This document shows positions 1-7,895 of a stretch of 7,895 nt of DNA, piece by piece; the stretch's first letter is position 1, and each line of letters opens with the position of its first letter. The notes beneath the pieces are model-generated. The model had not been told where the DNA came from, did not search any database, and worked only from the letters and a program-made list of their open reading frames with translations. Position numbers and translations under genes: made by a program. The stretch comes from Rickettsiales bacterium (lineage in GTDB: Bacteria; Pseudomonadota; Alphaproteobacteria; Rickettsiales; 21-14-0-20-44-7), in assembly GCA_023301015.1 (NCBI GenBank), contig JALZVI010000346.1, positions 1 through 7,895 of the forward strand. The letters are read 5' to 3'.

Positions 1-48
1 AAGAAAGCCAAAAAGAAATTAAAATGTGATTTACCTCACAGCATTTAA
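1..48 (+). CDS. Possible 3' tail of an upstream gene (partial)
   Basis: Two frames could be the end of a gene that begins before the window. Frame 1 reads a lysine-rich KKAKKKLK stretch and stops at TAA 46-48. It resembles the Lys-Leu tail of the hexapeptide-repeat gene at 100-750. Frame 3 reads ESQKEIKM and stops at TGA 27-29. The nucleotides here also resemble the end of the gene at 1631-1933 (aagaaagc followed by A-rich sequence and then the promoter unit), which would favour frame 3. Either way the sequence suggests another hexapeptide-repeat paralogue upstream. Too little is present to decide. Confidence 0.25.
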   Translation, partial: KKAKKKLKCDLPHSI

Positions 49-99
49 TCTCCATCCTGTTATTATATCCCACTGACACAAACAACGAAACATTGGCAA
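38..99 (+). promoter_or_regulatory. Repeated promoter-leader unit, copy A
   Basis: Extended -10 TGtTATTAT with the hexamer at 61-66. No convincing -35 lies 17 bp upstream; that position falls in the conserved CACAGCAT block. The leader is CACTGACACAAACAACGAAACA, 33 nt from the -10 to the ATG at 100. It lacks the GGA found in other copies, so no Shine-Dalgarno is visible. Promoter function is inferred from conservation across eleven copies. Confidence 0.7.
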
Positions 100-750
100 A
101 TGAAAAAATACGAAATTAACAGTGATGGCAGGATCGTCGCATTGAAATCTGGGCCATGGGGTGACATAGGAACCGTGGGTGGTTTTGTCGAATCAGATGC
201 TAACTTGAGTCATGAAGGTGATTGCTGGGTGTCTGGTGATGCATATGTGTTTGGTCATGCTCGGGTGTTCGGGAATGCTCAGGTATCCGGCAATGCTAAA
301 GTATTTGGTCATGCTCAGGTCTATGATAATGCTCATGTACTCGGAGGTGCTAGGATATTCGATAATGCTCAGGTCTATAATAATGCTCATGTACTCGGAG
401 GTACTAGAATATATGAGGATGCTCATGTGCTTGGTAATGTTAAAGTATCTGGTAATGCTCATGTGTTTGGCGATAGTATAATATTTGACAATGCTAAAAT
501 ATCTGGCGATGCTATAGTATCTGGTAATGCTCATGTGTTCGGTGATAGTATAATATTTGACAATGCTAAAATATCTGGCGACGCTATGGTTTATGATGAC
601 GCTATGGTTTATGATGACGCTAAAATATCTGAGAATACGCATGCGTCAGAAAATATCCAGAAATGTAAAAACAAAAAGAAGCTTAAGAAAGTCGAAAAGA
701 AGCTTAAGAAACTTAAGAAACTTAAGAAGCAGATCCAGAACGAGACTTGA
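100..750 (+). CDS. YdcK-like hexapeptide-repeat (left-handed beta-helix) protein, paralogue 1
   Basis: A 216-residue protein. Residues 1-45 are an N-terminal cap shared with three other genes in this window, with the landmarks GPWGDIGTVGGFVES and GDCW. The cap resembles that of E. coli YdcK (GGWVDADN...GDCWIYD). Residues 45-185 are tandem hexapeptides of the V-x-G-x-A-x type, predicted to form a left-handed beta-helix. A 24-residue block (SGNAHVFGDSIIFDNAKISG plus four) occurs twice in a row. Residues 188-216 are a lysine/leucine tail (KKLKKVEKKLKKLKKLKK) that the paralogues lack. No acyltransferase catalytic loop is visible, so an enzymatic role is not supported; a scaffold or binding role is only a guess. 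The start follows promoter copy A directly and aligns with the MKKYEI starts of the paralogues. The function of this family in phages is unknown to me. Confidence 0.9.
   Translation: MKKYEINSDGRIVALKSGPWGDIGTVGGFVESDANLSHEGDCWVSGDAYVFGHARVFGNAQVSGNAKVFGHAQVYDNAHVLGGARIFDNAQVYNNAHVLGGTRIYEDAHVLGNVKVSGNAHVFGDSIIFDNAKISGDAIVSGNAHVFGDSIIFDNAKISGDAMVYDDAMVYDDAKISENTHASENIQKCKNKKKLKKVEKKLKKLKKLKKQIQNET
451..594 (+). repeat. Two tandem 72-bp units inside the hexapeptide gene
   Basis: Units 451-522 and 523-594 are nearly identical, differing at a few third positions (for example gtgtttggcgat against gtgttcggtgat). Each encodes four hexapeptides, so a change in copy number keeps frame. An 18-bp unit, gctatggtttatgatgac, is then also doubled at about 591-626. 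This points to recent growth by slippage or unequal recombination. Confidence 0.85.
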
Positions 751-1511: not shown

Positions 1512-1630
1512 TGTCACATAAAAAACGTAACATGATTACGAAAATTTTGTGACAGATGCCCATGTTGCTGATGTTACCAGAATGAGACTTGGTTATCAGC
1601 ATGTTATTTTGGTTCTGTTATTATAACCAC
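1512..1630 (+). repeat. Conserved upstream regulatory block, copy 1 (dyad plus leaderless promoter)
   Basis: Aligns without gaps to 5456-5574; together with the ATG, about 112 of 122 positions match by eye, and the first 45 or so are identical. It contains a dyad centred on 1533: TGTCACA (1512-1518) with TGTGACA (1548-1554), and inside it CGTAA (1526-1530) with TTACG (1536-1540). Its 3' end is the promoter of the next gene. It could be an operator, an RNA structure or a recombination site; the sequence alone does not decide. Confidence 0.8.
1582..1630 (+). promoter_or_regulatory. Repeated promoter unit, copy C, predicted leaderless
   Basis: Begins GAGACTTGGTTATCAGCATG and has an extended -10 TGtTATTAT (hexamer 1619-1624). 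Only AACCAC separates the -10 from the ATG at 1631, so the expected transcription start coincides with the start codon. The ACTGACACAAACAACGGAACA leader of other copies is absent. Confidence 0.7.
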
Positions 1631-1933
1631 ATGAAAAAATACAAAATAAAAAAAGACGGGCGAATTAAGGCTTTGATCGCTGGGCCATGGGGTGATATTG
1701 GAACCGTGGGTGGTTTTGTTGAATCGGAAAAGAATCTGAGTCAGCTTGGCGATTGCTGGATATATGACAATGCTGAAGTCTGCGGCAATGCCCATGTTGA
1801 TGGTGATGCTCGGGTGTCTGGCAATGCTCGGGTGTCTGGCAATGCTTGGGTATCTGATGATGCTCATGTATCTGGTAATGCTGAAGTATTTGGTAATGCT
1901 GAAGTATTTGGTAGTTCTATAAAAGAAAGCTAA
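1631..1933 (+). CDS. YdcK-like hexapeptide-repeat protein, paralogue 2 (short)
   Basis: A 100-residue protein with the same N-terminal cap as the 100-750 gene (MKKYKIKKDGRIKALIAGPW, then GDIGTVGGFVES, then GDCWIYD). Only about nine hexapeptides follow, such as DARVSGNARVSGNAWVSDDA, before it ends SSIKES. It is the shortest of the four paralogues and lacks the Lys-rich tail. The frame stays open upstream to a TTG at 1589, but that would place the start inside the promoter; ATG 1631 aligns with the MKKYEI starts of the others. No Shine-Dalgarno can exist if the mRNA begins at the ATG. It is the only paralogue driven by the dyad-associated promoter, so it may be controlled differently. Confidence 0.87.
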   Translation: MKKYKIKKDGRIKALIAGPWGDIGTVGGFVESEKNLSQLGDCWIYDNAEVCGNAHVDGDARVSGNARVSGNAWVSDDAHVSGNAEVFGNAEVFGSSIKES

Positions 1934-2385: not shown

Positions 2386-3096
2386 ATGCAAACCGAAACC
2401 GTAGAAACTACTGAAGTAGCAGATGAAAAAATCATCGAGCGCATCCGTAACTTATTCGCGATGTCGCAGGATGACTCTAGTCCACGTGAAGCTGAAATTG
2501 CACTAAAGCGATATCAGTCACTAATGCTAAAGTATGGCATCACTGAAGCTGATCTAACTACCAGTGAGTTTGGTGATGGTGCAAGTTTTGAGGGAAAAAC
2601 ACTCGAATTATGGCGACAGTTTATGTCAATCGGGATCGCTAAGTTTACTGATACTGTGGTGACTATCGAAACCGGGAGTTTTAGAATGCGCAAAATTGTA
2701 TTCAAAGGTTATAAACGTGATGTTAACGCCGCTATCCTTATGGCCGATTATCTTGAAGGTACTATGCTGCGCTCCTTAAAGACATTTAAAAAGGAAACTG
2801 GTAGCACAGGCAAGGCAGCAAGCACCAGCTTCAAAAACAGCTTTGCATCAGCCGTTAGTCGCCGTATGCAAGACATGGCAGACGAAGCCGCTAAAACATC
2901 ACCAGATACCGCTAACGGTACTTCATTGGTAGTATCTAAAATGAAGGCAGTGGAGTCTGAGTTTGGTGCACAGCGAGTGAAAAAACATAATGCAGGCCCA
3001 AGTGATCTTGATGCCGCTGTATCAGGTAATATTGCAGGGTATAAAGTGAATCTCAATGCTCAGGTTAGCGGGAGCCAGCAAAAGGCGCTATCGTAA
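2386..3096 (+). CDS. DUF2786-domain phage protein
   Basis: A 236-residue protein. Residues about 14-57 fit the DUF2786 pattern: a helix with KIIERIRNLFAMSQDDSSP, then an EAEIAL.R...LM.KYGI helix. Residues about 70-175 resemble the companion region often found after DUF2786 (WRQFMSIGIAKF, KIVFKGYKRDVNAAILMADY, then a basic Ser/Lys stretch and SFASAVSRRMQDMADEAAK). The C-terminal 60 residues are low-complexity and polar. DUF2786 proteins occur in phages and bacteria; their biochemical role is not established as far as I know. The basic central part would allow nucleic-acid binding, but that is inference. It has its own promoter copy (E), a GGA before the start, and a hairpin after the stop. Confidence 0.87.
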   Translation: MQTETVETTEVADEKIIERIRNLFAMSQDDSSPREAEIALKRYQSLMLKYGITEADLTTSEFGDGASFEGKTLELWRQFMSIGIAKFTDTVVTIETGSFRMRKIVFKGYKRDVNAAILMADYLEGTMLRSLKTFKKETGSTGKAASTSFKNSFASAVSRRMQDMADEAAKTSPDTANGTSLVVSKMKAVESEFGAQRVKKHNAGPSDLDAAVSGNIAGYKVNLNAQVSGSQQKALS

Positions 3097-4383: not shown

Positions 4384-4451
4384 ATAGATCACACCATTTT
4401 ATTTTCAGCCTGTTATTATAACCCCACTGACACAAACAACGGAACACAGCA
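4384..4451 (+). promoter_or_regulatory. Repeated promoter-leader unit, copy G
   Basis: Contains ATAGATCACACC as in copy D; extended -10 TGtTATTAT (hexamer 4414-4419). The leader CCCACTGACACAAACAACGG continues AACACAGCA, 32 nt to the ATG at 4452, identical in its last bases to copy B. Confidence 0.72.
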
Positions 4452-4628
4452 ATGCGATTATTCAAGAAAAAAGGCGGATACCGAAAACACAGCACTACTA
4501 ACTGGTATGACGTAGCACTATTCATCACATTCCTTCTTATAGCAGTCTTTGCCTTTGCGTGGGCTATGAACGTACCATTAGCCCATAGCATTGCAGGATG
4601 GGATCTGTGGCGATTCGGAGACGGCTGA
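4452..4628 (+). CDS. 58-residue single-pass membrane protein
   Basis: ATG 4452 to TGA 4626-4628. The N-terminus is basic (MRLFKKKGGYRKH), followed by one hydrophobic segment at residues 21-40 (VALFITFLLIAVFAFAWAM) and a short, Trp-containing C-terminal part (AGWDLWRFGDG). The positive N-terminus predicts an N-in, C-out topology. The start follows the standard leader with a GGA 8 nt upstream, which makes it one of the better supported tiny genes here. It heads a run of three small membrane genes (to 4997) with gaps of one or two bases, so the three probably share one mRNA. No family recognised. Confidence 0.8.
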   Translation: MRLFKKKGGYRKHSTTNWYDVALFITFLLIAVFAFAWAMNVPLAHSIAGWDLWRFGDG

Positions 4629-5440: not shown

Positions 5441-5446
5441 TCGGTC

Positions 5447-5574
5447 ATGGGCATCTGTCACATAAAAAACGTAACATGATTACGAAAATTTTGTGACAGA
5501 TACCCATGTTGCCGATGTTACCAGAATGAGACTTGGTTATCAATATGTTGTTTTGGTTGTGTTAATATAAGTCC
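5447..5574 (+). repeat. Conserved upstream regulatory block, copy 2, with extended dyad
   Basis: 5456-5574 matches 1512-1630 without gaps. Here the dyad is longer: ATGGGCATCTGTCACA (5447-5462) pairs with TGTGACAGATACCCAT (5492-5507) with one mismatch. The inner pair CGTAA (5470-5474) and TTACG (5480-5484) shares the same centre at 5477. It lies between a terminator and a leaderless promoter. No gene in this stretch. Confidence 0.8.
5526..5574 (+). promoter_or_regulatory. Repeated promoter unit, copy I, predicted leaderless
   Basis: GAGACTTGGTTATCAATATG, then extended -10 TGtTAATAT (hexamer 5563-5568). The ATG at 5575 is 7 nt downstream, the same geometry as copy C. No leader and no ribosome binding site. 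Confidence 0.68.
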
Positions 5575-5748
5575 ATGGAAAAAATAATATACATAGTCGT
5601 CGGATATAACGACCTTATTTGTGAGCATTGGATTGTTTGCGCTCGGTTTGATTCCGATGCAGCAGAAGATGCTATGGCTGATGCGTATCACGCAGCGGAA
5701 GACAGTGATCACGTATCCTTTCATATAGAAGAAACCACGATAACATAA
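5575..5748 (+). CDS. 57-residue acidic soluble protein, predicted leaderless
   Basis: ATG 5575 to TAA 5746-5748. The sequence begins MEKIIYIVVGYNDLICEHWI, continues through an Ala/Asp-rich, probably helical middle (DSDAAEDAMADAYHAAEDSD) and ends HVSFHIEETTIT. A strand-helix-strand fold is plausible. Support for a real gene comes from the promoter geometry, which exactly matches the start of the hexapeptide gene at 1631, and from the stop overlapping the next start (TAATG), typical of coupled translation. It is encoded upstream of a membrane protein, and the two may act together; that is inference. No family recognised. Confidence 0.78.
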   Translation: MEKIIYIVVGYNDLICEHWIVCARFDSDAAEDAMADAYHAAEDSDHVSFHIEETTIT

Positions 5749-7231: not shown

Positions 7232-7606
7232 ATGATCGAGCAGGAACTACAAAACGAAATTTTCGACAGTGTTAAAGCCAGCGGCGGCGGTTCATTTTAT
7301 TTTGATGGAACTCCCCGTGTCCTTAATTCAGGATTTAGTTCAAGTTTGTCAGGCTTTGAAACGATATTGAAGTTAAAGGGACTAACACCTGTGAACCTTG
7401 TAAATGCTCTTAATGAGTTAGCGCGTAAGGTCGAAGATGTTGTTGACCACAAAACCCATATGTTAGGCGTGTGGGTAGATTCCGATAATCTTTATATTGA
7501 TCTGTCAGTTCAATATCAAGACATTCAAGCCGCCCTTGTCAGTGGCCGCGAGAATGAGCAAATAGCTATCTGGGATAACGCCAAAGGTGAGGAAATTCGT
7601 TTGTAG
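7232..7606 (+). CDS. 124-residue orphan protein
   Basis: Begins MIEQELQNEIFDSVKASGGG. A Gly/Ser-rich patch (ASGGGSFYFDG, SGFSSSLSGF) is followed by a helical segment (VNLVNALNELARKVEDVVDH), strands (HMLGVWVDSDNLYIDLSVQY) and an acidic end. AAGAGAA about 7 nt before the ATG is a weak Shine-Dalgarno. It is the first gene without the repeated promoter unit. It is followed by the hairpin at 7614-7650 and may be co-transcribed with the tiny basic gene at 7695. I do not recognise it. Confidence 0.8.
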   Translation: MIEQELQNEIFDSVKASGGGSFYFDGTPRVLNSGFSSSLSGFETILKLKGLTPVNLVNALNELARKVEDVVDHKTHMLGVWVDSDNLYIDLSVQYQDIQAALVSGRENEQIAIWDNAKGEEIRL

Positions 7607-7613
7607 TAGTAGG

Positions 7614-7650
7614 AAGTCCCTTCTAGTGTTGTCAGGCACTAGAAGGGCTT
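7614..7650 (+). terminator. Strong hairpin after the 124-residue gene
   Basis: CCCTTCTAGTG (7618-7628) pairs perfectly with CACTAGAAGGG (7637-7647) across an 8-nt loop. It is extended by AAG/CTT after a one-base bulge. Only a short CTTACAATT follows, so it may terminate weakly or act as an mRNA stability or attenuation element before the tiny basic gene. Confidence 0.65.
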
Positions 7651-7682
7651 ACAATTGATCTGACAACCCAATCCAAACCAAA

Positions 7683-7694: not shown

Positions 7695-7763
7695 ATGCCT
7701 CGTAAATCCTATATGAAACCGCGCAAGCGATCATCTGTTAAGAAACCGAGACGGACCAAATAA
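7695..7763 (+). CDS. 22-residue highly basic peptide
   Basis: MPRKSYMKPRKRSSVKKPRR followed by TK: 11 of 22 residues are Lys or Arg and none are acidic. It has the best Shine-Dalgarno of the window and a strong terminator starting 2 bp after its stop, with a second hairpin before it. That compact setting argues for a real, well-translated gene despite its size. The composition suggests binding to nucleic acid or to an acidic partner. The tiny basic DNA-packaging proteins of small phages (the phiX174 J type) are an analogy of composition only. Chance cannot be excluded for so short a frame. Confidence 0.6.
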   Translation: MPRKSYMKPRKRSSVKKPRRTK

Positions 7764-7765
7764 AT

Positions 7766-7793
7766 AAAAAAGCCTGCGAATGCAGGCTTTTTT
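7766..7793 (+). terminator. Rho-independent terminator
   Basis: AAAAAAGCCTGC (7766-7777), loop GAAT, GCAGGCTTTTTT (7782-7793). Perfect 12-bp stem with a GC core and a six-T run: the most canonical terminator in the window. The A-run also makes it usable in the opposite direction. It isolates the downstream CRISPR-like unit from upstream transcription. Confidence 0.93.
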
Positions 7794-7799
7794 GATAAT

Positions 7800-7830
7800 T
7801 CGCACCCGTAACGGGTGCGTGGATTGAAAT
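7800..7830 (+). CRISPR. Solitary type I-C-like CRISPR repeat (candidate RNA anti-CRISPR)
   Basis: A perfect palindrome CGCACCCGT (7801-7809) / ACGGGTGCG (7811-7819) is followed by TGGATTGAAAT (7820-7830). Type I-C repeats, about 32 nt long, have this layout: TCGC...GCG stem, then GTGGATTGAAAC or GTGGATTGAAAT, whose last 11 nt become the crRNA 5' handle after Cas5d cleavage. Only the first base (usually G) differs from that pattern at the 5' end. There is no second copy: the 65 nt downstream and the 34-nt-spaced position upstream contain nothing similar, so this is not an array. In phages such solitary repeat units can act as RNA anti-CRISPRs (Racrs) that trap Cas proteins. No cas gene is present. 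Its promoter is uncertain; GATAAT at 7794-7799 is a possible -10. Confidence 0.8.
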
Positions 7831-7845
7831 GATATAAAAGATATA

Positions 7846-7895
7846 ATGAAAATATACACTGAAAAGTATTGGGTTTTACGTGATGCTAAAAAACA
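7846..7895 (+). CDS. Start of a gene running off the window (partial)
   Basis: ATG 7846 opens a frame, MKIYTEKYWVLRDAKK, that continues to the window edge without a stop. It starts 15 bp after the CRISPR-like repeat. The preceding gatataaaagatata is A/T-rich and contains -10-like TATAAT overlapping the ATG, but no clear Shine-Dalgarno. The residues look like ordinary protein. Too short to identify; other start codons or a chance frame are possible. Confidence 0.4.
   Translation, partial: MKIYTEKYWVLRDAKK

What the first reader, a model, noticed from the sequence alone, without database searches (positions are those of the whole stretch)
7800..7830. Solitary type I-C CRISPR repeat mimic: candidate RNA anti-CRISPR
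Seen: a perfect 9-bp stem CGCACCCGT/ACGGGTGCG with one unpaired base, followed by TGGATTGAAAT, standing alone right after a strong terminator in an apparently phage-derived accessory region. Known: type I-C repeats share this stem-plus-GTGGATTGAAAY layout and are bound and cut by Cas5d; phages carry solitary repeat units (Racrs) that act as decoy crRNAs and block Cascade assembly. Inferred: this unit gives protection against a host type I-C system. The downstream 65 nt could be the pseudo-spacer, or the next gene's leader may start straight after the handle. Alternatives are a captured repeat from a host array or a mini-array used against rival phages.
Basis: partly seen in the sequence, partly recalled or inferred. 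Interest (0 to 1): 0.9.

Follow-up and report, generated by a model that had tools for sequence, protein, structure and literature searches.

The report
Solitary CRISPR repeat in a phage
A phage genome fragment carries one lone copy of a bacterial type I-C CRISPR repeat, probably an RNA decoy against the host's CRISPR immunity, and a survey of similar lone repeats in viruses suggests they tend to sit directly in front of viral genes.

Summary
Window 7799-7830 is a 32-nt unit, TTCGCACCCGTAACGGGTGCGTGGATTGAAAT. It matches fetched type I-C array repeats at 29 of 32 positions; the best of 100 shuffled windows reached 24. It folds as an 8-bp hairpin with a 3-nt loop. No second repeat lies in the 398 nt upstream or the 65 nt left downstream. 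Of 13 genomes picked for such repeats, 12 carry cas5d. The window is phage-like DNA without a close named relative. This is a good new candidate solitary repeat unit, the class to which the tested RacrIC1 belongs. Anti-CRISPR function is not shown. The main gap is expression: a terminator ends 5 nt upstream, and neither a sigma-70-like site nor the phage's repeated promoter/leader motif lies near. Host unknown; conservation in near relatives could not be tested. The unit ends 15 nt before a possible gene start. Of 101 solitary I-C units in viral contigs, 30 had an SD-preceded start within 80 nt on the same strand and 11 on the opposite strand (sign test p=0.0026), so leader placement may be a real feature of part of the class.

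The parts
7799..7830 (+). Solitary type I-C-like repeat unit, 32 nt
   Evidence: 29/32 to array repeats; shuffles at most 24/32
7801..7819 (+). Hairpin: 8 bp (7801-7808 with 7812-7819), loop 7809-7811
7820..7830 (+). Putative 11-nt 5' handle UGGAUUGAAAU left by Cas5d cleavage; cut inferred between 7819 and 7820
   Evidence: Sequence; 11-nt handle from PMC5965380 (passages); cut site inferred
7766..7793 (.). Symmetric intrinsic terminator, 12-bp stem, 4-nt loop, ends 5 nt before the unit
   Evidence: listed on the - strand; + strand
7846..7895 (+). Possible start of next gene, MKIYTEKYWVLRDAKK..., runs off the window; no strong Shine-Dalgarno
   Evidence: only forward frame without a stop after the unit; 16 codons only
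7695..7763 (+). 22-aa basic ORF upstream of the terminator
   Evidence: no family match
7232..7606 (+). 124-aa ORF, weak phage-family match phrog_17808

Best explanation
A phage-borne solitary type I-C repeat unit that works as an RNA decoy (Racr-like). Shown: the repeat letters, predicted hairpin, tail, solitude within the window, and phage-like surroundings. Inferred: RNA polymerase reads through the terminator, or starts at an unrecognised phage promoter, and the RNA carries the hairpin. Host Cas5d binds it and cuts at the 3' base of the stem. One Cas5d stays on the hairpin; the downstream RNA starts with the 11-nt handle UGGAUUGAAAU and can recruit Cas5, Cas7 and Cas8 onto a guide without a target. 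This ties up Cascade parts and weakens immunity. The phage's own site should not be a target because the triplet before the pseudo-spacer is AAT, not the TTC PAM. In this window the handle probably runs straight into the leader of the next gene, so an mRNA would itself be the decoy.
For: 29/32 identity with I-C array repeats against a shuffle maximum of 24; hairpin stability; Cas5d (TIGR01876) above cut-off in 12 of 13 genomes that I picked among the 120 loci with such repeats, and in 1 of 14 control genomes, in the same region as an array in the two genomes where I compared places (G002, G004). Solitary: flanks at most 15/32. Units with the same stem and tail also stand alone in other viral contigs: 11 of the 27 stretches, 8 with distinct flanks, under the rules. 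RacrIC1, a solitary I-C unit, gave a targeted phage a strong advantage (PMC10651486, passages). Triplet at its own site AAT; the TTC preference is from the start of an abstract in a listing, PMC8406640.
Against: No promoter-like site on the + strand between 7039 and 7823 and no copy of the phage's 9-copy promoter/leader motif near the unit; terminator 5 nt upstream. The paper chose its tested candidates with a promoter within 250 bp upstream. No identical unit in IMG/VR, named phages or plasmids. Conservation in close relatives was not testable: two further contigs hold the neighbouring 124-aa protein or a 97% relative, but they could not be fetched. Of 1950 I-C spacers from 106 fetched loci none convincingly matches the window; the best, 17 of 35 nt at the PAM-distal end, has a chance expectation of about 0.03 by my estimate. 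No acr or defence family among the proteins searched.
Confidence: 0.58

Rival explanations
1. Leader switch: the unit is a Cas5d-sensitive 5' leader of the next gene. With type I-C proteins present, cleavage and Cascade loading on the mRNA turn the gene down; without them it is translated. Decoy action may be a by-product.
For: Possible ATG 15 nt after the unit. In viral contigs 30 of 101 solitary I-C units precede an SD-start within 80 nt on the same strand, 11 of 101 on the other strand (2 in both), sign test p=0.0026; the second set, same criteria, 14 v 5 of 52, p=0.049. L166 carries two different units, 15 and 13 nt before an SD-ATG.
Against: The window's own ORF is cut at 16 codons, lacks a strong SD and would fail the survey's criterion. 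71 of 101 units lack the layout, and 22 of 49 units of the first set overlap an ORF of 90 aa or more on some strand. 16 downstream proteins tested share no family. The enrichment may only reflect that such units lie after promoters.
Confidence: 0.13
2. Inert relic: a repeat captured from a host array by recombination, with no present function.
For: No promoter found, no copy found elsewhere, terminator directly upstream.
Against: Stem and tail are intact, and the three changes against the closest repeats lie in the loop and first base; relics should decay, though a recent capture would not have.
Confidence: 0.15
3. Part of a mini-array or a CreTA-like guide that uses host Cascade against rivals or a promoter.
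For: Such virus and host elements are known (PMC11656645 passages; PMC9458426, start of abstract).
Against: No second repeat at normal spacing; the 34-nt pseudo-spacer's best match in the window (21 of 34) is no better than for 50 shuffled versions (best 23, mean 21.2).
Confidence: 0.07
4. Attachment site for phage integration into a host CRISPR array.
For: Repeat-like viral sequences can mediate such integration (statement in the discussion of PMC10651486, read).
Against: No integrase or recombinase match among the window proteins searched; the rest of the phage is unseen.
Confidence: 0.05

Closest known systems
RacrIC1 (solitary I-C unit beside an AcrIC5 homologue, Bifidobacterium prophage; PMC10651486)
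   Same: A lone type I-C repeat hairpin with handle in a phage/prophage
   Different: RacrIC1 lies 11 nt downstream of an acr gene and shares its transcript; here no acr is recognised, a terminator lies directly upstream and a possible gene start follows
Array repeats GTCGCACCCTTTACGGGTGCGTGGATTGAAAT (L071, Bacillota MAG) and GTCGCACCCCTTACGGGTGCGTGGATTGAAAT (viral contig L027)
   Same: 29 of 32 positions, identical 7-bp outer stem and tail
   Different: First base T instead of G; two loop bases differ; the unit has one extra base pair and a 3-nt loop
Solitary unit in IMG/VR locus L172 (44.8-kb contig)
   Same: Terminator, unit, then gene start in the same order and orientation
   Different: Clear SD between unit and ATG; different stem letters; an opposite-strand ORF (213 aa) also covers the unit
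RacrIF1 (type I-F; PMC10651486)
   Same: Repeat mimic as decoy
   Different: For I-F the inhibitory product is the part upstream of the cut; in I-C both products could bind Cas proteins (inference)

Membership tests
Solitary repeat unit (SRU; rules of SRUFinder, PMC10651486, section read) | At least 90% identity and 90% coverage to a known CRISPR repeat | tested here: met
   29/32 = 90.6% over full length to repeats fetched here; plasmid-collection match 28/31. Their repeat file and bit cut-off were not run
Solitary repeat unit (SRU; rules of SRUFinder, PMC10651486, section read) | No full or partial repeat (70% or more) within 100 bp | tested here: inconclusive
   Upstream best 15/32, downstream 13/32, but only 65 nt exist downstream
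Solitary repeat unit (SRU; rules of SRUFinder, PMC10651486, section read) | Intergenic | tested here: inconclusive
   No ORF of 60 aa or more over the unit, open ends included; but one minus-strand frame is open for 54 codons from the window end across the unit, which looks non-coding to me. Prodigal not available
Type I-C repeat | Hairpin plus GTGGATTGAAAY tail, repeats of this kind found with cas5d | tested here: met
Racr (RNA anti-CRISPR) | Promoter within 250 bp upstream / transcription | tested here: not met
   No sigma-70-like site or phage leader motif there; a non-standard promoter is not excluded. The paper used it to choose candidates, not to define Racrs
Racr (RNA anti-CRISPR) | Host with CRISPR-Cas of the same subtype | not testable with these tools
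   Host unknown; no spacer link
Racr (RNA anti-CRISPR) | Binds Cas proteins and inhibits interference | not testable with these tools
   Needs an experiment

The most novel reading that the evidence does not exclude
Phages embed type I-C repeat hairpins in the 5' leaders of their own genes, so that ordinary viral mRNAs double as decoy crRNAs or as sensors of host Cas5d; the window unit is one of these leader units.
Probability: 0.2. Interest if true: 0.75.

Novelty: new member of a known kind. Interest (0 to 1): 0.45.

Why it matters
It adds a candidate RNA anti-CRISPR from a phage without close named relatives. The survey it prompted suggests a testable rule: viral type I-C solitary repeats are placed in front of genes, in a fixed orientation, more often than chance, which would couple decoy production to viral mRNA and might let phages sense or exploit Cas5d.

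Tried and rejected
Host identification failed. IMG/VR scans with the DUF2786 protein alone gave no relative; with an alignment they gave three distant ones, 28-42% identity, whose fetched stretches show neither the leader motif nor the repeat tail. tblastn of that protein found 315 phage records, none at 60% identity or more, 293 of them Pseudomonas by name; a second protein (815-1198) found 14 records, 13 Lactococcus phages and one Vibrio phage, also under 60%. The leader resembles one in Pseudoalteromonas phages (10 of 18 matching records, E 1e-3 to 0.2). These hints conflict and I leave the host open. A CreTA-like guide or self-target was tested and not supported. Rfam gave only matches below each family's gathering score. 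A Vibrio plasmid match lacks the I-C tail; an Akkermansia phage match has a degenerate unit with a broken tail. The 17-nt spacer match (L015) was rejected as chance. Eleven genomes of the phylum of G002 were searched for the unit with its exact loop: 0 of 11.

Full report
What is there. The window (40% GC) is phage-like DNA. Its + strand ORFs include a YdcK-type beta-solenoid protein (three more copies by DNA similarity), a DUF2786/DUF7168 protein (phrog_421) and several ORFs without matches. Nine copies of a promoter/leader motif (TATTATAAC...CTGACACAAACAACGGA) precede genes. No named phage matches at DNA level with megablast. With sensitive blastn 23 records match; in the 20 listed, the matches begin and end in the solenoid genes (one runs 3 nt past). 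No whole genome is held for it.

The unit. TTCGCACCCGTAACGGGTGCGTGGATTGAAAT at 7799-7830 is 32 nt long. It folds as 8 bp with a UAA loop, -14.4 kcal/mol; two array repeats fold as 7 bp with 5-nt loops, -12.8 and -13.1. Against 66 distinct 32-nt repeats it reaches 29 of 32; shuffled windows reach at most 24 in 100 trials. The repeats were collected with the unit's stem and tail as pattern, so this shows kinship, not an unbiased rank. Of 13 genomes that I picked from loci with such repeats, 12 have Cas5d (TIGR01876) above cut-off and one (G001) has none; the 14 control genomes ring in 1. In the two genomes that I compared, Cas5d lies near an array (G002: array 826284-826974, cas5d 831961; G004 contig 15: array 65-630, cas5d 5622). 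The type I-C label is therefore tested, not only recalled.

Solitude. No ungapped stretch in the 398 nt upstream or the 65 nt downstream exceeds 15 of 32. An I-C array would show its next repeat within that distance. The unit (29 nt of it) is absent from IMG/VR. A version with one free loop base is absent from the genome collection. BLAST of the 32-mer against phages gave 3 records, at best 86% over 28 nt; against plasmids 22 records, the best long match 28/31 in Monoglobus records. Two other contigs carry the neighbouring 124-aa protein or a 97% relative but could not be fetched, so conservation among near relatives is untested.

Expression, the weak point. A symmetric 12-bp terminator ends at 7793. 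On the + strand no sigma-70-like site falls between 7039 and 7823 and the phage's own motif scores no better there than background. Transcription would need read-through or an unknown promoter. The frame opening at 7846 is the only forward frame without a stop to the window end, but 16 codons prove little and the SD is weak. On the minus strand one frame is open for 54 codons from the window end across the unit; I take it as non-coding, without proof.

Comparison class. 'Solitary' here means no other repeat-like stretch within about 140-160 nt; some of these contigs carry further repeats elsewhere (L004/L005, L017, L180). After setting aside 218 array units and 12 units within 80 nt of a stretch end, 115 solitary units remained, 101 after removing near-identical flanks. 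I had noticed that many stand right before a start codon. With criteria then fixed (SD-like motif, start within 80 nt, ORF of 60 aa or more, or 25 or more codons running off the stretch) the first set gave 16 sense against 6 antisense of 49, p=0.041. The second set, not examined before, gave 14 against 5 of 52, p=0.049; together 30 against 11 of 101, 2 in both, p=0.0026. Random positions give 11-12%, ORF-free positions in the first set 16%. Within 30 nt, a cut-off chosen afterwards, I count 16 sense and 3 antisense from the rows. Against this: 71 of 101 units lack the layout, 22 of 49 in the first set overlap an ORF of 90 aa or more on some strand, gene calling was crude, and the window itself would not pass the criterion because its ORF is cut. 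L172 has the window's order: terminator, unit, start codon; a terminator ending within 25 nt upstream was found for 4 of 101 units. L166 carries two units with different stems, 15 and 13 nt before an SD-ATG. Downstream genes: I tested 16 proteins, nearly all from the first set's rows (two, L195 and L208, had no SD, and L206 was taken from a later start; L174 and L210 and the second set were not tested). Matches were a tail fibre (L017), a Lar-like protein (L206), a weak transglycosylase match (L161) and three families of unknown function; 10 had none. [quoted passage not shown] the sections and passages of it that I read do not describe a bias towards leaders, and my searches on this listed no paper that does by title or abstract start. 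Its supplements were not read.

Mechanism. From PMC5965380 (passages): Cas5d cuts I-C pre-crRNA to leave an 11-nt 5' handle; one Cas5d stays on the 3' hairpin and a second is proposed to bind the 5' handle. Applied here (inference), the cut lies between 7819 and 7820 and both products could hold Cas proteins. RacrIC1 shows that a solitary I-C unit can inhibit (PMC10651486, passages); its native place is downstream of an acr gene. [quoted passage not shown] Self-targeting is unlikely since the triplet before the pseudo-spacer is AAT.

Verdict. A credible new solitary I-C unit in a phage; Racr-like function is the best explanation at 0.58, limited by missing evidence of transcription, host and conservation. 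The leader reading is the more novel one.

Noticed in passing
L166 (IMGVR_UViG_3300032069_000010), minus strand, handles at 3096 and 5570 of the reversed locus: Two solitary I-C units with different stems in one viral contig, 15 and 13 nt before an SD-ATG on the same strand.
   Followed up: partly
L159 and L161 (same contig IMGVR_UViG_3300031673_000079): Three identical dispersed solitary I-C units; two share an upstream element GTGATATCTTCA(G/A)TATCTGCG, and two precede SD-starts (58 and 24 nt).
   Followed up: partly
L007, minus strand unit at 5724 of the reversed locus: A solitary I-C unit flanked on both sides by the same roughly 33-nt sequence, like a spacer-repeat-spacer with identical spacers.
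   Followed up: no
L016 (115-kb contig), minus strand 3040-3072: Solitary unit between a tRNA cluster (12 tRNAs in the locus) and an open reading frame of at least 1005 codons that starts 24 nt later.
   Followed up: partly
L003, L009, L020: The same solitary unit lies inside a 73-aa ORF in three contigs with the same flanks.
   Followed up: no
L153 (Akkermansia phage Chantilly), locus 801-829: A degenerate I-C-like unit, GTCGCACTCCGCAAGGTGTGCGTGGATTGA followed by a run of C instead of AAY, between phage genes.
   Followed up: no
window 1512-1639 and 5456-5583: A 128-nt stretch duplicated at 91% identity, with an imperfect inverted repeat at the second copy (5446-5474 / 5480-5508), in front of different genes.
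   Followed up: no
window 7618-7647 and 7660-7667: An 11-bp hairpin whose loop region GTTGTCAG (7628-7635) is complementary to CTGACAAC 7660-7667: possible pseudoknot upstream of the 22-aa ORF.
   Followed up: no
window 44-100, 761-814, 4398-4452 and six further copies: Promoter/leader motif repeated nine times; resembles a leader in Pseudoalteromonas phages.
   Followed up: partly
L272: An array-like stretch in a viral contig mixing GCGTGGATTGAAAC and GCGGGAATTGAAAC tails.
   Followed up: no
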